From: Nitrospirota bacterium
GTDB taxonomy: Bacteria; Nitrospirota; JACRHJ01
Length of the DNA stretch: 64,000 nt
Reading direction: 5' to 3'
Assembly: GCA_021784575.1 (NCBI GenBank)
Contig: JAJYHX010000003.1
Location: 1-64,000 of the forward strand
In this document: piece by piece, positions 5,501 through 49,465 of the stretch
Layout of the letters: every line of letters begins with the position of its first letter
How positions within the stretch are numbered: the stretch's first letter is position 1
Position numbers and translations under genes: made by a program
Notes under the pieces: model-generated
Databases searched by the model: none
Told to the model about the DNA's origin: nothing
Seen by the model: the letters and a program-made list of their open reading frames with translations, nothing else

Positions 5501-6582
5501 TTTTTCTTCCGCCCGCCGGCGGCCGACCGCCCCGGATAGTGTTTCGCCATTACCCTGTAAAGTTCGCCCGGAGTCGGGACGCCGCCGCCCGGCCTGCCGT
5601 AGAACTCCACCGGCCTTTTCCCGTTTACGCTGAGTCGAACGTCCTCAACCATCTGCCCAAGGTTCATCTCGATTGTCAGGAACTTCCTGGCGCGCAACGC
5701 GGCCTTCCGGTATGCATCTTCCGGGAACGGGAAGAGCGTCACGGGCCTGATAAGCCCCACCTTCTTCCCGGCGGCTCTCATCTCGCGGACGGCGGACTTT
5801 GCAATCCTCGCGGCGGTGCCGTATGCCGCAACGACAAGTTCCGCGTCGTCAAGCATGAATTCCTCGGCCATCGTCTCGGCTCTCTTCATGCGCTGGTATT
5901 TCTTGTGCAGGACGTAGTTCATCCTCTCAAGCTCGCCGTCGCCCATGAAGAGGGATTTCACGACGTTCGGCTCCCGCCCCTCGCACCCGGTGAGCGCCCA
6001 GGGCTTCTCGAACTTCTTAAGCTTCGGCGCCTTAAGCTTCACCGGCTCCATCATCTGCCCCAGGACGCCGTCCGCAAGTATCATAACCGGGTTCCTGTAT
6101 TCGTCCGCCTTCTCGAACGCCTTTATCGCAAGGTCGTAGGCCTCCTGCACGCTCGCGGGGGCATAGACGAGAAGACGGTAATCCCCGTGTCCGCCGCCCT
6201 TGACGGCCTGGAAGTAATCCGCCTGCGAGGCCGAGATGTTGCCAAGCCCGGGGCCGCCTCTCTGGACGTTCACGATAACCGCCGGGAGCTGCGCTCCCGC
6301 GAGATAGGATATGCCTTCCTGCTTCAGGCTTATGCCCGGGGACGACGAGGAGGTCATGGCCCTGACGCCGCAGGCGGATGCCCCGAAGACCATGTTTATC
6401 GCCGCCAGCTCGCTCTCGGATTGCAGGAACACGCCGCCCATCTCCGGCATCCTCCTCGACATATACTCCGGTATCTCGTTCTGCGGTGTGATGGGATAGC
6501 CGAAAAAGAACCGGCATCCGGCCCGGATGGAGCCTTCCGCCAGCGCCTCGTTGCCTTTTAAAAGGACTGTCTTTACGCTCAT
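5497..6582 (-). CDS. vorB: 2-oxoacid:ferredoxin oxidoreductase alpha subunit (VorB/KorA type)
   Basis: This 361-residue protein resembles the alpha subunit of 2-oxoisovalerate or 2-oxoglutarate ferredoxin oxidoreductase. Such complexes oxidatively decarboxylate 2-oxoacids to acyl-CoA and reduce ferredoxin. It opens with LLKGNEALAEGSIRAGCRFF and GYPITPQNEIPEYM, the pyrimidine-binding domain signature. QSESELAAINMVFGAS and TSSSSPGISLKQEG follow, and the C-terminal transketolase-like domain ends near YRVMAKHYPG. ATG at 6582 overlaps the upstream stop as ATGA. A complete enzyme also needs the TPP-binding beta and a gamma subunit. Neither is in this window, although a delta-type ferredoxin lies upstream at 7677-7877. 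Substrate preference cannot be read from the sequence. Confidence 0.85.
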   Translation of the reverse strand: MSVKTVLLKGNEALAEGSIRAGCRFFFGYPITPQNEIPEYMSRRMPEMGGVFLQSESELAAINMVFGASACGVRAMTSSSSPGISLKQEGISYLAGAQLPAVIVNVQRGGPGLGNISASQADYFQAVKGGGHGDYRLLVYAPASVQEAYDLAIKAFEKADEYRNPVMILADGVLGQMMEPVKLKAPKLKKFEKPWALTGCEGREPNVVKSLFMGDGELERMNYVLHKKYQRMKRAETMAEEFMLDDAELVVAAYGTAARIAKSAVREMRAAGKKVGLIRPVTLFPFPEDAYRKAALRARKFLTIEMNLGQMVEDVRLSVNGKRPVEFYGRPGGGVPTPGELYRVMAKHYPGRSAAGGRKKN

Positions 6583-7634
6583 GGATAATCCGCCTCCCAG
6601 AAATCGAATTCCACGTCAACCGTCCCGGTCTTCAGAGGCTGCGGCCCGCTCGCCTGGCCGGTCTGGCCCGCCGTCTGACCGGTCTGACCGGTCTGGCCGA
6701 ACTGGTCTGCCTGACCGGGCTGATTAAACTGGTCCATCTGGGCGGCCTGGGCAGCCTGGCTTGTCCGGGACGTGTCGTCAATGCTGTAGACATCATACCC
6801 GAAGCTGCCGGGATAGCTCCTTACGTCCATGCTGGAATTTGCCTGGACGACCGTCGAGGGCACCTCCGAGGGGCTTTTGAACACGAACCGCACCGGCGAG
6901 CTTGAGTTGTTCCGCAGTTTCCCGAGATACTCCTTCTGCTGGGCCATCTGCTGCTGCGCCCGCAGCTTCGCCTCGACGGCCTCCTGCCTCTTTTCCTCCG
7001 CCGCGGCGGCAGCCGCCGCCTTCGCGCGTTCGGCCTCTCTTTTCTTCTGTTCCTTCTCGTAGCCGTCTATCGACTTTATCTCGTCTGCGGCGGCCTGGGC
7101 AAAGCCCGTCCCCGGATATTTCTTTATTATCCCGTTGAAGGAGTCCTTCGTATAGGCCTTGAACGCGGCGTAGTAGTCCGGGTTAATCTCCTTCAGGTTC
7201 TTCTCCGGCAATTCCCTCAAGAGCGGGGCTATGAACCGGCTGTGCGGGAAGCGCGCGAGGAAATCCTTATAAGCCTCGCTCGAACCGGCCTTCACTGCGT
7301 GGTTGAGCGCGACAATCTCCGGCGTAAGCAGCCAGCGCGCCTGCATCCCGTCGGTTATCTTGTTCAGCTCGTAAAGCGGGAGCTTGTCGCTCCAGAACAT
7401 GTCCGAATACATCTCGGAGGACGTAATCCTCGCCGCCTCCTGCCCGGACTGCGTGACGATCAAAAACATCATGCCCGGCAGAACGCCGTCTTTTTTGCCT
7501 ATGTTCACGCACACTTCCCTGGCGTCCCTGTTCACCTCAATCACGGCGCCCACGGGAAAACCCATAATCGTCTGCCTCGCGCCCATAAGGGGCAGGGCAA
7601 TTAAAAGAAGCAGAGAGAACTTAAACCACTTCAT
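6579..7634 (-). CDS. Secreted FlgT-like/coiled-coil protein with Gln-rich tail
   Basis: No named function is recognised. Starting at ATG 7634 the protein has 351 residues and a signal peptide (FKFSLLLLIALPLMGARQ). Residues about 25-60 (GAVIEVNRDAREVCVNIG, GVLPGMMFLIV) resemble FlgT C-terminal-like domains of envelope proteins. A charged coiled coil rich in Ala, Lys and Glu follows at about 195-240, and the C-terminus has low-complexity GQTGQTGQT runs. The SD GGGGGAG lies two bases before the ATG and is supplied by a hairpin repeat. An in-frame start at 7652 is upstream of the SD and less likely. The gene sits between a ferredoxin and vorB, which it overlaps by four bases. That is odd for a secreted protein. 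Confidence 0.6.
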   Translation of the reverse strand: MKWFKFSLLLLIALPLMGARQTIMGFPVGAVIEVNRDAREVCVNIGKKDGVLPGMMFLIVTQSGQEAARITSSEMYSDMFWSDKLPLYELNKITDGMQARWLLTPEIVALNHAVKAGSSEAYKDFLARFPHSRFIAPLLRELPEKNLKEINPDYYAAFKAYTKDSFNGIIKKYPGTGFAQAAADEIKSIDGYEKEQKKREAERAKAAAAAAAEEKRQEAVEAKLRAQQQMAQQKEYLGKLRNNSSSPVRFVFKSPSEVPSTVVQANSSMDVRSYPGSFGYDVYSIDDTSRTSQAAQAAQMDQFNQPGQADQFGQTGQTGQTAGQTGQASGPQPLKTGTVDVEFDFWEADYP

Positions 7635-7679
7635 AACTCCCCCTTGTCCCACTCTTGCCTTAAGAGAGGGGAAAGGTTA
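7634..7679. repeat. TAAC/GTTA hairpin repeat, family A
   Basis: A GC-rich imperfect hairpin bounded by TAAC and GTTA, with arms of CCCCCTTG...CACTCTT and AAGAGAGGGG. On the minus strand its first bases form the TAA stop of the ferredoxin gene. Its last bases give GGGGGAGTT plus the A of the next ATG. Related copies lie at 22480-22519, 22531-22570, 34616-34660 and 37141-37190. Confidence 0.75.
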
Positions 7680-7877
7680 CACCACATCTATCGCCCCGTC
7701 CGGGCATATCAGCGAGCACATCCCGCAGCCGGTGCATTCATCCTGCCGGACGGCCAGCACCGCATAGAACCCGAAACTGTTATATTCGCCGCCCTGCTCC
7801 AAAAGGCCCTTCGGGCACATGGCCGTGCACAGAAGACACCCCTTGCAAAGCTCCCTGTCCACAATCGCCTCAGACAA
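7677..7877 (-). CDS. 2x[4Fe-4S] ferredoxin, delta-type subunit of 2-oxoacid oxidoreductase
   Basis: This 66-residue ferredoxin carries two cluster motifs, CKGCLLCTAMCP and CTGCGMCSLICP. Its layout is that of the small delta (KorD/VorD-like) subunit which takes electrons from 2-oxoacid:ferredoxin oxidoreductases. The link to vorB is supported by their occurrence in one run, although a secreted-protein gene separates them. The start is TTG at 7877 with GGAGG five bases upstream, and it overlaps the recN stop by eight bases. It could also serve other redox partners. Confidence 0.85.
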   Translation of the reverse strand: MSEAIVDRELCKGCLLCTAMCPKGLLEQGGEYNSFGFYAVLAVRQDECTGCGMCSLICPDGAIDVV

Positions 7878-9591
7878 CGCCGCCTCCCCTTTTCACAAGC
7901 TCCGCCGCATGGGCCGAAGCCGCCTTCGACTCGTCGTCTCCGAGCATCCTCGCCACCTCCCGCACGCGCTCGTCTTTTCCGAGCCTCCTTATGGATACCT
8001 TTGTGCTCTTCCCGTCCGTCGTCTTCTCCACGACGAAATGTTCCCCGGCCTGGGACGCAATCTGCGGCAGGTGCGTTATCGCCAGCACCTGCCGGTTCAT
8101 GGCCGCCTCCTTAAGCTTCCTCCCGACGGCGACGGCGGTCTTGCCGCCGACACCCGAGTCCACCTCGTCGAATATCAGCGTGGGGACATTGTCCGCGCTT
8201 GAGAGTATCACCTTCAGCGCGAGCATCACGCGGGAGAGCTCTCCGCCGGAGGCAATCTTCGCAAGCGGTTTCGGCCCCTCGCCGGGATTGGCCGAGAACA
8301 AAAACTCCGCCCTCTCCATCCCGTGCGCCGAGGGCCTCTCCTGCGGATAGAACTCCACCCTGAACTGCGCCTTCTCCATACCGAGCTCGGAAAGCTCGGA
8401 GCGCACCCTCTCGCCGAATTCCCCGGCCCCGGAGTTGCGCTTCCCGGAGAGCTTCCGGCCAAGCTCCAGCAGGGCGGCCTCGGAGCCGGCTATCCTCGCC
8501 TTCAGGCTGTCAAGGTCTTCCCCGCTTCCGCTTATGGCCTTAAGCTCTTCCTCAAGCCGCTCGCGGCAGGCCAGGACATCCTCTATGGTCCCGCCGCCGG
8601 TCGACTGGTCGGCGCCGGCCGGCCGGCCGTATTTCTTTTTAAGCCTCGATATGACATCCAGCCTCTCCTCGACTGCGGAAAGCCTCTCGGGGTCCGCCTC
8701 AAGCGTCCGCTCGAAATCCCTGACGGCCGAACACGCCTCCACGAGAGACACATGGGCGTTCTCGATGAGCTTCAGGGTCTCATCCAGGGAACCGGCCAGG
8801 GCCTGCATCTCACGAAGGGCCTTCCTGGCCTCGCCCACAGCCGCAAGCGCCGGGGAGTCAGAGTCCTTCAGCCATGCGAGGACATCCCCCGAGAGCGCCC
8901 GGAGCCTGTCCGCATGGACAAGCCTTTCGCGCTCGGACTTAAGCCCGTCCTCCTCCGGGGCCGAGAGCTCCGCCTTGTCGATCTCGTCTCTCTGGAAGAG
9001 CAGCATATCCAGCCTCTGCTCGCGCTCCCGCCTCCCCGTTTCGAGGCCGGCCAGGCTGTTCTTCAGCCCGGCAAGCTCCCGGAACCTCGCGGCATATTCC
9101 GAATAAAGCGCACAGGCCCCGCAGAATTCGTCGAGCTGCCCAAGCTGCCTGTCCGCTCTCAGAAGGGACTGGTGGTCGTGCTGGCCGTGAATGTCGACCA
9201 GGCGCTCGCCTATCTCCTGGAGCGTCTGGATGCTCGTGAGCGAGCCGTTCACGTATGCGCGTCCCCTGGGGGATATTATCCTCCTTATGGCAAGCTCGTC
9301 TCCGGAGGGCAGACCCTTTTCCTCGAGGAGCGCCCCGACCCCCGGGACAGAGGAGATGTCGAATATCCCCTCGACGGCGGACTCTTCGTCGCCACCGCCG
9401 CCGTTGCTACGGTCGCCGCCCGGCCCGACGCGGCTCGAACCGCCAGGACCTCCGAGGAGCACGCCTACCGCATCCGCGAGGATGGACTTACCGGCGCCCG
9501 TCTCGCCCGTCAGACATGTAAGACCGCCCGAGAGGGAGATTTCCAGCCTGTCTATGATGGCGAAGTTCCTGACCGAGAGGACTCTTAACAT
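7870..9591 (-). CDS. recN: DNA repair protein RecN
   Basis: A protein of 573 residues, close to the usual RecN length. It is an SMC-like ATPase that acts on chromosomal DNA in double-strand-break repair. The N-terminus MLRVLSVRNFAIIDRLEI is typical, with Walker A GETGAGKS at residues 29-36. A long coiled-coil centre spans about 160-390. The C-terminal ATPase half carries IASGGELSRVMLALK (signature) and LIFDEVDSGVGG (Walker B), then LAITHLPQIAS. Residues about 60-75 hold a Gly/Ser-rich insertion in the N-terminal lobe. ATG 9591 lies one base after the upstream stop, so the two genes are probably cotranscribed. Confidence 0.96.
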   Translation of the reverse strand: MLRVLSVRNFAIIDRLEISLSGGLTCLTGETGAGKSILADAVGVLLGGPGGSSRVGPGGDRSNGGGGDEESAVEGIFDISSVPGVGALLEEKGLPSGDELAIRRIISPRGRAYVNGSLTSIQTLQEIGERLVDIHGQHDHQSLLRADRQLGQLDEFCGACALYSEYAARFRELAGLKNSLAGLETGRREREQRLDMLLFQRDEIDKAELSAPEEDGLKSERERLVHADRLRALSGDVLAWLKDSDSPALAAVGEARKALREMQALAGSLDETLKLIENAHVSLVEACSAVRDFERTLEADPERLSAVEERLDVISRLKKKYGRPAGADQSTGGGTIEDVLACRERLEEELKAISGSGEDLDSLKARIAGSEAALLELGRKLSGKRNSGAGEFGERVRSELSELGMEKAQFRVEFYPQERPSAHGMERAEFLFSANPGEGPKPLAKIASGGELSRVMLALKVILSSADNVPTLIFDEVDSGVGGKTAVAVGRKLKEAAMNRQVLAITHLPQIASQAGEHFVVEKTTDGKSTKVSIRRLGKDERVREVARMLGDDESKAASAHAAELVKRGGGVV

Positions 9592-9592
9592 C

Positions 9593-10642
9593 TCACTTCA
9601 TCTCGTACCACGACATCTTTGTCGTGAAATCCCAGCCCGGCGCGCACGAACCGCACGCCCCGACCTGTATGGCCGGCGAGTAAAGGTTGTTGTTGATGTA
9701 AATGTCCGTCACCTCGCCCGGTGTTATGTCAACGCCTGCGGAATAGGTCTTCCAGGTGGGCGTGGGGTCCCAGGAGGACTCCTCCTTGTAGGGCATCCGC
9801 ACGGCGACCGTATAATCCCCCGCCGGGAAGTTCCGGCAGAACTTCGACGCCAGATACATGTTCTGGAAATGACCTATGGAGATTGTATGACTGCCGAAGG
9901 CGATGTCGCTGCTGGGGAGCTGGCTCCACCATATCCGCACACCGCCGTAAAGGCGGACGAGCTTCACATGTATCTTCGCCGTCTTCCCCTTCACCACCTC
10001 GACCTTCTGCCTGTATTCCTGATACCCGGACAGGCGAAGCCTTATCCTGTGCATCCCGGGCTTGAGGTCCTTCAGCGAAAGCGGCGTAATCCCGCTTTTT
10101 TCGCCGTCCACATACAGCCTGGCGCCTTCGGGTTCGGTCATTACCCGCATCACTCCCGGGACGGGCGGGAGAACCCCCGCCAGGGCCGCGATTATCTTGT
10201 TCGATAACTTGTCCACGTCGTCGAACATGGTGTTTTCCGTGGACTGCGCCTTGTCTATGAACTTTATCGCGCCGGTCTTTACGTCGTATACCCGGACGTC
10301 TATCCTGAACCGCCCGCCGAATATCACGTAATCGCCCGTCACGGCGTATGCCGCGCCAAGCTTTTTCGCAGCCTTCAGGGAGTCTTCGACGGACGGCGCG
10401 CCACCTGTGAGCGGCATGCGGAAAACCGCCTCCGACACCGTCTGCGGGTCTATGATGTCGATGTTATTTATCTTTGCGAGGTTCGTGAAGAACATGACCG
10501 GAAGGCCGGAGGACAGGCCCCTGTCCTTCGCCTGGCCGTTGTTCTCGAAAGGAAAGACCGCGAGCTTCGGGTTCGCGCAGAAACCGGCGGAAGGGACGGC
10601 AAGGACAAAGAGTAGAAACGATAAAAAGAATATTTTCCTCAT
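9593..10642 (-). CDS. Periplasmic FlgO/CsgG-like protein with PEGA domain
   Basis: Starting at ATG 10642 the protein has 349 residues and a signal peptide (MRKIFFLSFLLFVLAVPSAG). Residues about 25-165 (KLAVFPFENNG to NKIIAALAG) resemble the nucleotide-free FlgO/TolB/CsgG-type fold of envelope assembly proteins. Residues about 170-235 are a PEGA domain (TEPEGARLYVDGEKSG, PGMHRIRLRLSGYQEY), common in surface proteins. A C-terminal region of about 110 residues with CGSC near the end is not recognised. An upstream in-frame start at 10756 would begin inside the terminator palindrome and put sequence ahead of the signal peptide, so it was rejected. The gene leads the recN run. Its exact role is unknown. 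Confidence 0.7.
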   Translation of the reverse strand: MRKIFFLSFLLFVLAVPSAGFCANPKLAVFPFENNGQAKDRGLSSGLPVMFFTNLAKINNIDIIDPQTVSEAVFRMPLTGGAPSVEDSLKAAKKLGAAYAVTGDYVIFGGRFRIDVRVYDVKTGAIKFIDKAQSTENTMFDDVDKLSNKIIAALAGVLPPVPGVMRVMTEPEGARLYVDGEKSGITPLSLKDLKPGMHRIRLRLSGYQEYRQKVEVVKGKTAKIHVKLVRLYGGVRIWWSQLPSSDIAFGSHTISIGHFQNMYLASKFCRNFPAGDYTVAVRMPYKEESSWDPTPTWKTYSAGVDITPGEVTDIYINNNLYSPAIQVGACGSCAPGWDFTTKMSWYEMK

Positions 10643-46720: not shown

Positions 46721-47101
46721 CTATTTATTTCCCTCCTGCATAACCTTACGCTTTTCCTTCCATTTTGCGACGAGCTTATCGAACTTCCTCTCCTGGTCCG
46801 GGCGAAGCGCCGTCCTTATCTTGGTCTGCGCATCGGTCAATATCGAGTCAATCTTCGGCTGGTCTTCCCGCCGCATCTCGCGCATCTGGTTGTGGGCGTC
46901 GTTGACTATTACCTCCACCTGGGCGCGCTGGCCAGCATTGAGGCCAAGCTTGCGGCTAAGCTTCCTGACAACCTCTTCCCTGGAAGGCGGCTTACCCCAG
47001 GGCCTGCACTGCCGTATTACCGCGCTGCTTATTATCCCGCCTGCTATGGCGCCAAGGATGAATATAAAGATAATACCCAGGACTGCCTTCCATCTTTTCA
47101 T
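46721..47101 (-). CDS. Spy/CpxP-like periplasmic protein, membrane anchored
   Basis: A protein of 126 residues with one N-terminal membrane segment (VLGIIFIFILGAIAGGIISS). The helical remainder has the two-fold LTxxQ-like motifs of Spy/CpxP/heavy-metal sensor proteins, here LNAGQ and LRPDQ, with REEVVRKLSRKLG and WKEKRKVMQEGNK. Such proteins chaperone envelope proteins or sense metals and regulate stress systems. GGAG seven bases upstream defines the start. It overlaps the anti-sigma-like gene by four bases. Confidence 0.8.
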   Translation of the reverse strand: MKRWKAVLGIIFIFILGAIAGGIISSAVIRQCRPWGKPPSREEVVRKLSRKLGLNAGQRAQVEVIVNDAHNQMREMRREDQPKIDSILTDAQTKIRTALRPDQERKFDKLVAKWKEKRKVMQEGNK

Positions 47102-47397
47102 CTTCTGTCTCCCATTAGGCTGCTCAGATACATGGTCTGGTCATAATTGGCCGTCAGGGCTGTGCGCATGTCGATGGTGGGCGCAAACAGATAATACCAG
47201 CCTCCCAGTATCATAACCAGCACCGTAAATACCGGCATGAGCCTCCATGTCCAGGTAAACCAGACCGTCCTGGCCTCGCGCTCCGCCCGGAGTCTTGCCA
47301 AAACCCTCGTCTCCAGACCTCTCTCGACACCCGACACATCAGGCTCCATAGTCCGCGCCAGTCTAAAAAACTCGTCGATTTTGTCCTTCATGTTCAT
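47098..47397 (-). CDS. Small single-pass membrane protein, probable anti-sigma factor
   Basis: A protein of 99 residues with a charged N-terminal cytoplasmic part of about 50 residues, one membrane segment (LMPVFTVLVMILGGWYYLF) and a short periplasmic tail. No recognisable zinc anti-sigma motif is present. It is called an anti-sigma factor from its size, topology and position directly after an ECF sigma gene, which it overlaps by four bases. An in-frame ATG at 47391 has the better-spaced GAGG. Confidence 0.6.
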   Translation of the reverse strand: MNMKDKIDEFFRLARTMEPDVSGVERGLETRVLARLRAEREARTVWFTWTWRLMPVFTVLVMILGGWYYLFAPTIDMRTALTANYDQTMYLSSLMGDRR

Positions 47398-47960
47398 ACC
47401 TCGTCATTAACTCCGAGTATTTTTTTCAACGCCTTACGCGCCCGAAACGCCCGGACTTTTATATTCGCTTCGGAGAGCCCGGTAATTACCGCAGCCTCCT
47501 TTACAGTCCTCTCCTCAAGCTCCAGCAGGGTAATGACTATACGCTCTATAGGCTTAAGCTTTGAAAGAGCCTTATCGAGCATCTCTTTTGCCTGCAATGC
47601 CTCCAGCTTCTTGCCTCCGTCCGCCGGCACGCTCAGGCTATACTCCACCTCTTCGATAGGCACGTCCCGCCTGGCGTTCTTCTTCTTTCGCAGGAAGTCG
47701 TAGCAGGCGCTCACGGCGACCTTTGTAAGCCAGTGCTCGAAAGGCGCTTCCTTCCTGTATCCGCCCAGGTTCCGGTATATTTTTATAAAAATATCCTGGG
47801 CAATATCGTCAAGCTCGCCGTGGTCCGCGGCATACCGGGCGGCAAGCCTCAGGACCTTGCGCTTATGCCTTCTGACAAGCTCGCCGAAAGCCTCGTCCTT
47901 GCCGGACTTGGCCGACTCCACAAGACTCTCGTCCGGAAGTTCCTCCAGGGAAATGTTCAT
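47394..47960 (-). CDS. ECF-type RNA polymerase sigma factor
   Basis: From ATG 47960 the protein has 188 residues. Region 2 is seen in ESAKSGKDEAFGELVRRHKR and ELDDIAQDIFIKIYRNL with KVAVSACYDFLRKKKNARR. Region 4 is in LSKLKPIERIVITLLELEER and AAVITGLSEANIKVRAFRAR, the helix-turn-helix for the -35 box. Longer frames to 48089 run through the Gly/His repeats of the upstream gene and were rejected. It probably controls the operon, because an ECF-type promoter lies upstream of the first gene. Confidence 0.92.
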   Translation of the reverse strand: MNISLEELPDESLVESAKSGKDEAFGELVRRHKRKVLRLAARYAADHGELDDIAQDIFIKIYRNLGGYRKEAPFEHWLTKVAVSACYDFLRKKKNARRDVPIEEVEYSLSVPADGGKKLEALQAKEMLDKALSKLKPIERIVITLLELEERTVKEAAVITGLSEANIKVRAFRARKALKKILGVNDEV

Positions 47961-47976
47961 CCTTTTATTATAACGC

Positions 47977-49386
47977 TCATCTCCCGGAACGACCGCCGCC
48001 ATGCCCGCCAAAACTGTGACCGCCTCCACCGAAACCGCGGCCGCCTCCAAAGCTGTGTCCGCCTCCACTGAAACCGTGTCCGCCTCCAAAACTGTGTCCC
48101 CTGCCTATCGACCCGCCGCCCCGGAAGGCGCTTGATGCGCCAAACGACCTTGCGGGTGCGCTGAACGACCTCACGGGCGCATTATTGAACGACCTCGCTG
48201 GCGCACCGAACGACCTGCCCTGCCTGAAAGTCCCGAATGCCCTGTTCCCATTTATGGCTGGTCTGTTAAACGACCTCCGGATATTCGGAGCGTTGAACCG
48301 GCCCGTAATATTCTCCGGCCTCCTCCACGGAATCCTGCCGGAGACTCCCGGCCTGCCGAGACTTCTGAAAGACCTCGCGGGCGCCGAACCGCTTCTGAAA
48401 CCCTGCGACGGCCTTAGCTTCCTCCCGAATATAGGCGCGCCGGGCGTGCCGGGACGGCTTACGCTCCTGTCAAGAATCCTCTGCGCGCTCCTGCTGTTAA
48501 AACGGCCAAACCGCCTTTCTCCATTGAATCCGGTATTGCCAATGATCCTCTGCCCGCGCAAGGCTACCCTTGAAACCGGGGCAAAAGACCTCGCGCCTAT
48601 CGGCCTGAAATCCGTCCGGACAAATGGCCGCTTGGAAACCGGGTCCAGCGCAACGGCATGTCCTGTAACCGGGTCAATAATATGGCTGCTTATCTGCCTG
48701 TCCCCGCGCAACATCCACCTGTGATGCCTGTAGAACCGGAAATCGTCCCTGTTGGTGAACGTGAAACCGTTATAGCCCGCGAACGTGAAGTCGAAGTCCG
48801 AAAGGACATAGTAGCCGGGGAACCAAAACCCGCCGCACCAGAACGGGAACGGATCCCAGAGGTACAGGTATGCGAAATCCGGCGGCGGAGCATAGTATGT
48901 GATGATGGGGGGGCCTTCGTCGTAATAGTAGTTTTCTACGACAGTTGGGGCGGTATAGGCCTCATCGCCGGTATATTGCTCCCCCGTTCCCGCCTGCGCA
49001 ACCTCGATGCCTATTTTACTGTTCAATGCGGCAAAGGCCTGCTCTGCATCCGCCTTGTTCATTGGAAGCTTGCCGGCATTGGCGGCGGCGGCAATGGCTG
49101 TCTGCAACTGTGCGATAATATCCGGCGTGACAGGAAAGTTGGAAATCCAGCCGCTCTTCGGGGCTATGCCTATATTGGCAAGCGCGGTTTCGGCATCGGT
49201 TTCCTTCTCCTGCGGGCCGATTTTGAGCGTCTGAACCAGCTCAATGGCATAATCGCCTTCCCTTACAACCTGTTGGCCCACGGAAGGCACAGTTTTGGAG
49301 CCTGAGTTATAATCCGAAGCAACGGTCAGCGAGGGTGAAACGAGGAATAATGTGGCCGTAATTATTGATAAAAACAGCCTTTTCAT
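47977..49386 (-). CDS. Secreted protein with Arg/Phe/Ser-rich centre and His/Gly-rich C-terminus
   Basis: A protein of 469 residues with a signal peptide (SIITATLFLVSPSLTVASD). Residues about 35-145 form a mixed domain. Residues about 155-235 are rich in aromatic residues (VENYYYDEGPPIITYYAPPP, LYLWDPFPFWCGGFWFPGYY). From about 270 on it is Arg/Phe/Ser/Pro-rich with RSFGAPARSF-like repeats. It ends in GGGHSFGGG-type repeats rich in His. This layout is found in DUF3300-like envelope proteins. His-rich repeats suggest metal binding (inference). GAGG precedes ATG 49386. It is the first gene of the sigma operon. Confidence 0.72.
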   Translation of the reverse strand: MKRLFLSIITATLFLVSPSLTVASDYNSGSKTVPSVGQQVVREGDYAIELVQTLKIGPQEKETDAETALANIGIAPKSGWISNFPVTPDIIAQLQTAIAAAANAGKLPMNKADAEQAFAALNSKIGIEVAQAGTGEQYTGDEAYTAPTVVENYYYDEGPPIITYYAPPPDFAYLYLWDPFPFWCGGFWFPGYYVLSDFDFTFAGYNGFTFTNRDDFRFYRHHRWMLRGDRQISSHIIDPVTGHAVALDPVSKRPFVRTDFRPIGARSFAPVSRVALRGQRIIGNTGFNGERRFGRFNSRSAQRILDRSVSRPGTPGAPIFGRKLRPSQGFRSGSAPARSFRSLGRPGVSGRIPWRRPENITGRFNAPNIRRSFNRPAINGNRAFGTFRQGRSFGAPARSFNNAPVRSFSAPARSFGASSAFRGGGSIGRGHSFGGGHGFSGGGHSFGGGRGFGGGGHSFGGHGGGRSGR

Positions 49387-49437
49387 AATTGCCTCTTTTC
49401 TCCTCTTGTGAGGATATTTCTCTTTCTTTTAATTATA

Positions 49438-49465
49438 TAGACGGTATAGCCGGAAGTATGGTTAC
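49438..49465 (-). promoter_or_regulatory. ECF-sigma-type promoter
   Basis: On the minus strand GTAACC (49465-49460), 16 bases, CGTCTA (49443-49438), 52 bases before ATG 49386. AAC-type -35 and CGTC-type -10 boxes at this spacing are known for many ECF sigma factors, so the sigma factor of this operon may control itself. Confidence 0.6.

What the first reader, a model, noticed from the sequence alone, without database searches (positions are those of the whole stretch)
46721..49465. Self-controlled ECF sigma operon with His/Gly-rich secreted protein and Spy-like partner
One transcript would encode a secreted protein with His-rich repeats, an ECF sigma factor, a one-pass membrane protein and a Spy-like protein, all with tight overlaps. 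GTAACC-N16-CGTCTA in front fits autoregulation. The set looks like an envelope or metal stress circuit with an unusual sensor order: target gene first, regulator after.
Basis: partly seen in the sequence, partly recalled or inferred. Interest (0 to 1): 0.5.

Follow-up and report, generated by a model that had tools for sequence, protein, structure and literature searches.

The report
Self-switching envelope stress sigma circuit
A Nitrospirota bacterium carries a self-controlled genetic switch that appears to turn on a protein-folding helper and a drug-type efflux pump when the cell envelope is stressed; many relatives in its phylum carry the same switch with nearly the same promoter sequence.

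Summary
The four-gene minus-strand operon and its GTAACC-N16-CGTCTA box are real. The box occurs three times, exactly, in the 2.1 Mb genome: before this operon, a Spy/CpxP gene and an mdtA-mdtB efflux operon (reversed-pattern control 0). In five genomes of the genus all 12 exact copies lie at these three orthologous promoters. Of 40 relatives of the Spy-like gene examined in the phylum, 36 sit behind a sigma gene on the same strand; 33 of 37 sigma loci keep GTAACC...CG(A/T)CT; 18 of 40 have an MdtA-type gene downstream. So this is best read as an autoregulated ECF circuit with a CnrY-shaped anti-sigma candidate and a CnrX/Spy-fold sensor candidate, controlling spy and mdtAB, targets that E. 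coli gives to BaeSR. Corrections: the first protein is Gly/Arg/Ser/Phe-rich, its His tail not conserved; target-first order is common, usually with a Spy-type gene; the Spy-like protein here has one His, so the CnrX metal site is absent. No published description was found in the library searched. A new variant of a known kind. Stimulus, protein contacts and expression are untested.

The parts
49438..49465 (-). Proposed autoregulatory ECF promoter: GTAACC (-35, 49460-49465), 16-nt spacer, CGTCTA (-10, 49438-49443)
   Evidence: conserved at the same place in G001, G002 and G003
47977..49386 (-). ORF1: secreted 469-aa protein; conserved N-terminal region and YYYDEGPP...WDPFPFW core, variable Gly/Arg/Ser/Phe-rich tail; occupies in this genus the slot between promoter and sigma
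   Evidence: (no Pfam family)
47394..47960 (-). ECF sigma factor (regions 2 and 4), proposed to read the GTAACC/CGTCTA promoters
   Evidence: (TIGR02937 97.1 bits, cut-off 42.9)
47098..47397 (-). One-pass 99-aa membrane protein, proposed CnrY-like anti-sigma factor (hydrophobic segment 53-71; orientation inferred)
   Evidence: (anti-sigma model 17.7 bits, below its cut-off 100)
46721..47101 (-). SpyX: membrane-anchored four-helix Spy/CnrX-type protein, proposed periplasmic sensor or co-anti-sigma

Best explanation
This is an autoregulated ECF sigma circuit for envelope stress. In unstressed cells the one-pass 99-aa protein holds the sigma factor at the membrane, and the anchored Spy-fold protein SpyX reports the state of the periplasm to it. 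On stress SpyX changes state, the sigma factor is freed and reads GTAACC-N16-CGTCTA promoters: its own operon (raising ORF1, sigma, anti-sigma and SpyX together, hence positive feedback with built-in shut-off), a free periplasmic Spy/CpxP chaperone, and an MdtAB RND efflux pump. Shown by sequence comparison: the operon, the box, its three conserved sites, and the linkage in the phylum of sigma, a one-pass protein, SpyX, Spy and MdtA. Inferred: that this sigma reads the box, that the one-pass protein is the anti-sigma factor, that SpyX senses, and that the stimulus is periplasmic misfolding or a toxic compound.
For: Exact box: 3 in the genome, reversed control 0. In five genomes of the genus 12 of 12 exact boxes lie upstream of the same three orthologous genes: operon 4, mdtA 5, spy 3; the G002 spy site has one mismatch and the G003 spy contig begins inside the site. 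MdtA and MdtB exceed NCBIfam equivalog cut-offs; the Spy target exceeds both Pfam thresholds. Independent linkage: of 40 SpyX loci 36 have sigma on the same strand with a gap of 163-410 nt, and 18 have an MdtA-type gene (phmmer E 1e-97 or better) downstream on the same strand, 16 of these within 90 nt. GTAACC-N15..17-CG[AT]CT lies by the sigma gene in 33 of 37 loci; 40 hits in the 40 loci against 1 in the backward control. Detached mdtA genes with their own site: L276, L300. The SpyX model matches CnrX, Spy and CpxP next after a Salmonella VirG-like (STV) protein. The genome has two intact ECF genes; two further sigma hits are long, non-ECF frames by eye.
Against: No expression or binding data. 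G004 shows no operon yet keeps the spy and mdtA boxes; its contig stops inside the flanking gene, so absence is not shown. The one-pass protein has no Pfam family and no PDB match. SpyX is below both Pfam thresholds, its Foldseek matches have E > 1 and its Z scores are in the range helical bundles reach by chance. Four of 37 sigma loci lack the promoter pattern (L244, L257, L263, L279; L263 is cut at the contig start); in three of the 33 (L271, L275, L278) the site lies inside the longest sigma frame, so a later start must be assumed. A stricter pattern in 14 genomes gave 21 hits against 8 in control. With looser matching the box sinks into noise: 32 against 26 at two mismatches in the home genome, 39 against 17 at one mismatch in five other genomes.
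Confidence: 0.78

Rival explanations
1. A CnrYXH-type metal circuit: SpyX binds a metal such as Ni, Co, Cu or Zn and releases the sigma factor, which induces efflux and metal-binding proteins.
For: Same part list as CnrYXH-CnrCBA (passages of PMC7689651 and PMC4803752): anti-sigma, anchored sensor, ECF sigma, RND pump under the same sigma; PF13801 Metal_resist is the best Pfam hit of SpyX; CnrX is among the better structural matches; [quoted passage not shown] in relatives a second His (position 80) recurs in 20 of 43 and a Met (92) in 17 of 43, and some first-gene Spy proteins look His-rich by eye.
Against: In the window SpyX has one His; this His is kept in 30 of 43 aligned sequences, Cys32 in 4 of 43, and the four sequences of the genus lack the second His and the Met. 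The pump is MdtB-type, 1598 bits against cut-off 1584, while the CusA/CzcA metal model scores 369 against cut-off 701. The ORF1 His tail is not conserved.
Confidence: 0.17
2. The operon is autoregulated by its sigma, but the spy and mdtAB boxes are read by the second ECF sigma, whose own promoter is GTAAAC...CGTCTA.
For: A second ECF gene and a short ECF-like frame exist in the genome; the promoters differ at one base of the -35; G004 keeps both boxes with this operon unseen.
Against: The box classes stay distinct at orthologous sites in the genus; in other families mdtA and a Spy-type gene lie beside this sigma type.
Confidence: 0.12
3. SpyX is only a chaperone product, not a sensor; the one-pass protein alone senses, for example by regulated proteolysis as RseA does (recalled).
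For: E. coli Spy is a regulon product, and a spy gene is a target here.
Against: SpyX has an uncleaved-looking membrane anchor and keeps its place behind the sigma gene in 36 of 40 loci even where free Spy and MdtA are elsewhere.
Confidence: 0.3

Closest known systems
CnrYXH-CnrCBA of Cupriavidus metallidurans
   Same: ECF sigma, membrane anti-sigma and anchored periplasmic sensor; the sigma drives its own operon and an RND efflux operon (passages in PMC7689651 and PMC4803752).
   Different: Gene order sigma/one-pass/SpyX rather than Y-X-H; the single His of SpyX cannot form the CnrX metal site; the pump is MdtB-type; a free Spy chaperone and ORF1 are added; no sequence match of the one-pass protein in the PDB search.
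BaeSR regulon of Escherichia coli / Salmonella
   Same: The core targets are spy and mdtA (with acrD) according to passages of PMC3160322; here spy and mdtAB share one promoter box.
   Different: An ECF sigma and membrane partners instead of a histidine kinase and response regulator; acrD was not looked for.
Caulobacter crescentus sigma-F / NrsF
   Same: GTAACC -35 with N16 spacing; sigma acts on its own promoter and a small regulon (passages of PMC3511200).
   Different: -10 is CGAA there, CGTCTA here; sigF is not strongly autoregulated under metal stress there; NrsF has two functional cysteines, the one-pass protein here none.
Spy / CpxP (LTXXQ) periplasmic chaperones
   Same: Predicted four-helix fold; structural matches to Spy and CpxP; profile match to Spy at E 0.024.
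   Different: SpyX is membrane-anchored, below the Pfam thresholds, and fixed in a sigma operon.

Membership tests
ECF sigma factors (TIGR02937; PF04542, PF08281) | Sigma regions 2 and 4 above family cut-off | tested here: met
   97.1 bits vs 42.9; PF04542 61.6 vs 24; PF08281 51 vs 25.7
ECF autoregulation | Own operon preceded by the promoter shared with the regulon | tested here: met
   33 of 37 sigma loci in the phylum. By sequence only
CnrYXH system | ECF sigma, short one-pass membrane partner and anchored sensor in one operon | tested here: met
   (hydropathy; function of the partner untested)
CnrYXH system | One-pass partner homologous to CnrY | tested here: inconclusive
   No PDB sequence match up to E 10
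CnrYXH system | Sensor has the CnrX fold | tested here: inconclusive
   CnrX Z 6.5 over 78 residues, rmsd 2.5; Z below about 13 is not decisive for helical bundles
CnrYXH system | CnrX metal ligands (several His, Glu63, Met123; the His set is recalled) | tested here: not met
   One His in the window SpyX. In relatives a second His recurs in 20 of 43, not in this genus
CnrYXH system | RND efflux operon under the same sigma | tested here: met
   Shared box before mdtA in 5 of 5 genomes of the genus; by sequence only
MdtABC (multidrug RND) | NCBIfam equivalog scores for MdtA and MdtB | tested here: met
   416.7 vs 391 and 1598.4 vs 1584
BaeSR envelope stress response | spy and mdtA under one envelope-stress regulator | tested here: met
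   Shared box; by sequence only
BaeSR envelope stress response | BaeS/BaeR two-component pair as that regulator | not tested
   The regulator in the operon is an ECF sigma; no search for BaeSR homologues in the genome was made. A response regulator and a kinase-like gene lie divergently beside mdtA, not studied
Spy/CpxP family (PF07813, PF13801), SpyX | Score over the Pfam threshold | tested here: inconclusive
   PF13801 25.8 vs 29.2; PF07813 22.1 vs 24.3
Class I zinc-binding anti-sigma (zf-HC2 / RsrA type) | zf-HC2 domain or its His/Cys motif | tested here: not met
   No Pfam family; 0 Cys and 0 His in the one-pass protein
Sigma-F/NrsF of Caulobacter | Anti-sigma with two conserved cysteines | tested here: not met
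   0 Cys; feature from PMC3511200 passages

The most novel reading that the evidence does not exclude
In this lineage a metal-independent relative of CnrX has become a chaperone-based sensor: the anchored Spy-fold protein reads unfolded periplasmic protein or membrane damage directly and gates an ECF sigma factor. Nitrospirota would thus run the spy-mdtAB stress response, which enterobacteria run by BaeSR, through an ECF switch kept with its promoter across much of the phylum, with an exchangeable effector slot (Spy in many lineages, ORF1 here) between promoter and sigma. (Lowered from 0.35 after one search showed a second His in 20 of 43 relatives.)
Probability: 0.32. Interest if true: 0.68.

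Novelty: new variant of a known kind. Interest (0 to 1): 0.52.

Why it matters
It gives Nitrospirota a concrete, promoter-defined candidate envelope-stress regulon that can be tested in E. coli with cloned parts. It links a CnrX/Spy-fold anchored protein to an ECF sigma in a setting without the CnrX metal site, and shows the same pair of targets (Spy and MdtAB) wired to a different regulator class, which bears on how envelope stress circuits are rebuilt in evolution.

Tried and rejected
Rejected: His-rich tail as a metal store (not conserved). Rejected: unusual gene order. Rejected: ORF1 as a core part of the circuit. Of the 38 loci fetched around ORF1 homologues (35 from other genera, 3 in-genus paralogues), 37 have no sigma-type hit; the one that has it (L143) carries a second-type sigma on the other strand. 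Some of these contigs end near ORF1, so neighbours can be missed. Of ten named loci L181-L190 (several the same contigs as above) one, L187, the same contig as L143 by length, has a sigma gene. The in-genus paralogue loci L173-L175 hold no GTAA[ACT]C...CG[AT]CT site.

Led nowhere: ORF1 structure (mean pLDDT 49; Foldseek best E 1.1); Pfam on 13 ORF1 relatives, one weak ApbE hit; sigma-70/terminator scan, at shuffle level; the ECF classification paper PMC7826278 is not held, so no ECF group number is given. VIA-align's listing excludes no other family.

Literature: absence of a published description rests on searches only; their listings were read, not the papers. Of five papers (PMC8103513, PMC3511200, PMC7689651, PMC4803752, PMC3160322) I saw passages. 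Subscription papers are mostly missing from the library.

Selection told: the 40 SpyX loci (L244-L283) were fetched by hand from the match tables (395 genomes, 65 with an A2 match), mostly the best matches, plus G294:C191 (sigma side of a broken contig) and G222:C45 (weak match). Loci without a sigma hit: L248, L252 (contig ends) and L283 (weak match). Of the 16 genomes with a one-pass match the five weakest (E 2e-5 to 0.008) may be chance. Of 25 one-pass candidates measured, 22 have a hydrophobic segment; L272, L273 and L281 do not and look like wrong-frame picks. In one search I first printed only well-conserved columns; one search counts all His/Cys/Met columns.
Full report
What is there. 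On the minus strand, one operon runs from a 28-nt ECF-type promoter (49438-49465) through ORF1 (47977-49386), an ECF sigma factor (47394-47960), a one-pass 99-aa protein (47098-47397) and an anchored Spy-type protein, here called SpyX (46721-47101). The last three genes overlap by 4 nt each; ORF1 and sigma are 16 nt apart. The sigma factor has regions 2 and 4 well above Pfam cut-offs and is an ECF sigma by TIGR02937; its best solved relatives are RpoE and similar sigmas, with CnrH also in the list. The one-pass protein has one hydrophobic segment at residues 53-71 and no Cys or His; SpyX has an N-terminal one at 6-24 and a predicted four-helix domain (block pLDDT 71-91 over residues 41-120; mean of the whole model 67).

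The organism. The window is part of contig C5 of a 2.1 Mb assembly, 96.7% complete. Orthologous contigs are titled 'Nitrospirae bacterium', so the phylum is Nitrospirota.

The box is a regulon box. GTAACC-N15..17-CGTCTA occurs three times exactly in the genome and never in the reversed control. The other two copies stand 46 nt before a secreted Spy/CpxP-family protein (PF13801 and PF07813 above threshold) and about 100 nt before an mdtA-mdtB operon, both above the NCBIfam equivalog cut-offs. In five genomes of the genus there are 12 exact copies (3; 9), and all 12 lie before these three orthologous genes: ORF1 4, mdtA 5, spy 3. The G002 spy site has one mismatch; the G003 contig starts within the site, leaving CGTCTT. 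G004 shows no operon, but its contig ends inside the flanking glycosyltransferase gene. Looser searches are noisy: two mismatches give 32 hits against 26 in control in the home genome, one mismatch 39 against 17 in five other genomes. All five mdtA leaders also hold a TATAAT further down, perhaps for basal expression (by eye).

Independent support from relatives. A SpyX profile matches 65 of 395 genomes of the phylum (E up to 0.001) and a one-pass profile 16 of 395 (E up to 0.01). I read 40 stretches around SpyX matches. In 36 of 40 a sigma gene lies on the same strand with a gap of 163-410 nt, room for a gene of about 100 codons; in 35 of these the sigma is closest to the one studied here, in one (L279) to the second sigma type, beside a zinc-finger-type anti-sigma hit. 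L248, L252 and L283 have no sigma hit (two contig ends, one weak match); L253 has sigma and the one-pass gene at a contig end. In 22 of 25 picked middle frames there is one strong hydrophobic segment. In 18 of 40 an MdtA-type gene follows on the same strand, in 16 of these within 90 nt.

The promoter is conserved with the circuit. GTAACC-N15..17-CG[AT]CT lies by the sigma gene in 33 of 37 loci that hold one; missing are L244 (which has GTAACT instead), L257, L263 (cut) and L279. In all 40 loci on both strands the pattern has 40 hits, against 1 when read backwards. By my sorting, the 40 sites lead to a sigma gene (16), a secreted Spy-type gene (18), an MdtA gene (1) or other frames (5). I tested 14 Spy-type first genes by Pfam: all 14 match PF07813 at E 0.003 or better, 11 of 14 above at least one of the two family thresholds. 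Detached mdtA genes with their own site are L276 and L300, G203. In 14 genomes without an adjacent mdtA in the fetched stretch, the stricter GTAACCTT pattern gives 21 hits against 8 in control; enriched but not clean, and in most of these genomes the operon site was known beforehand.

How it most likely works. The one-pass protein is the anti-sigma factor, SpyX the periplasmic partner that reports stress, and the sigma factor, once free, drives its own operon, a Spy chaperone and the MdtAB pump. Because anti-sigma and SpyX come from the same transcript, the loop is positive but self-limiting. Shown: anatomy, box, conservation, linkage. Inferred: every protein contact, the sigma-promoter pairing, and the stimulus. 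The genome holds five sigma region-2 hits: this sigma, the second ECF, a short frame, and two long frames that read as primary-type sigmas by eye.

What it resembles. The part list and wiring are those of CnrYXH-CnrCBA, where sensor CnrX, anti-sigma CnrY and sigma CnrH control an RND pump (passages of PMC7689651 and PMC4803752). The SpyX model aligns with CnrX (Z 6.5, 78 residues), Spy (Z 6.2) and CpxP (Z 4.7), behind a Salmonella VirG-like (STV) protein (Z 8.6); such Z values alone are not decisive for helices, and Foldseek E-values are above 1. The CnrX metal site is not there: SpyX has one His, kept in 30 of 43 aligned sequences, with Cys32 in 4 of 43. Against a general claim, a second His at position 80 recurs in 20 of 43 and a Met at 92 in 17 of 43, none of them in this genus, so metal sensing in those relatives is open. 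I say the circuit works like CnrYXH but do not file it as a member. The targets are the core BaeSR targets spy and mdtA (passages of PMC3160322), under another class of regulator; a response regulator and a kinase-like gene also lie divergently beside mdtA here and were not studied. The -35 GTAACC is that of Caulobacter sigma-F, whose -10 is CGAA and which takes part in chromium and cadmium responses (passages of PMC3511200).

ORF1. Relatives occur in 40 of 395 genomes of the phylum and in Geobacter and Syntrophaceae records, but among the loci read outside the genus only one contig has a sigma gene nearby, on the other strand. A second copy in three congeners has no box. So ORF1 probably joined this circuit in the genus, in the slot that elsewhere often holds a Spy-type gene. 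Its fold was not resolved and its function is open; a surface or periplasmic protective role is a guess.

Novelty. Paper searches with sigma, Spy, CnrX, MdtABC and Nitrospira terms gave no description of this circuit in their listings; the library lacks most subscription papers and the ECF classification paper. ECF operons with anti-sigma genes are a known kind; the variant is the CnrX/Spy-type anchored partner, here without the metal site, tied to spy and mdtAB in many lineages of a phylum.

Noticed in passing
G000:C6:431681-433590 and on (L099 about 6680-9820): A second ECF operon: Lys-rich secreted protein first, then ECF sigma, zinc-finger anti-sigma (PF13490) and a DUF3106 protein; its promoter is GTAAAC...CGTCTA, one base from the box studied here, also found in G001 (twice), G003, G004 and G005. 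The same target-first order.
   Followed up: partly
G000:C2:28067-28095 (L177, gene 5949-7985 minus strand): A third box class, GTAATC-N16-CGTCTA, lies before a FecR-DUF6600 protein in G000 (Pfam) and before similar-looking frames in G002 and G005; boxes of this class also occur in G001, G003 and G004 (downstream genes not read, save one in G001 that differs). No hit to either sigma in the 15 kb read.
   Followed up: partly
G000:C3:45245-45487 (L176 6245-6487, minus strand): An 80-residue frame with only part of sigma region 2, perhaps an ECF remnant.
   Followed up: no
L173, L174, L175 (G002:C6, G001:C26, G003:C38): A second copy of ORF1 (44-47% identical over the N-terminal part in two of them), near a gene that looks like seryl-tRNA synthetase by eye, without the box.
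   Followed up: partly
G199:C4:192344-192469 (in L278) and G199:C14:3664-3786: GTAACCTT boxes occur as divergent pairs about 100 nt apart at two places, one of them at the sigma operon.
   Followed up: no
L001 448-903 (minus strand): A small secreted protein follows spy in G000, G001 and G004; no Pfam or NCBIfam family found for the G000 one.
   Followed up: no
L098 7725-9721 (plus strand): A response regulator and a kinase-like gene lie divergently from mdtA in the home genome, so mdtAB may have a second regulator, as in enterobacteria (by eye).
   Followed up: no
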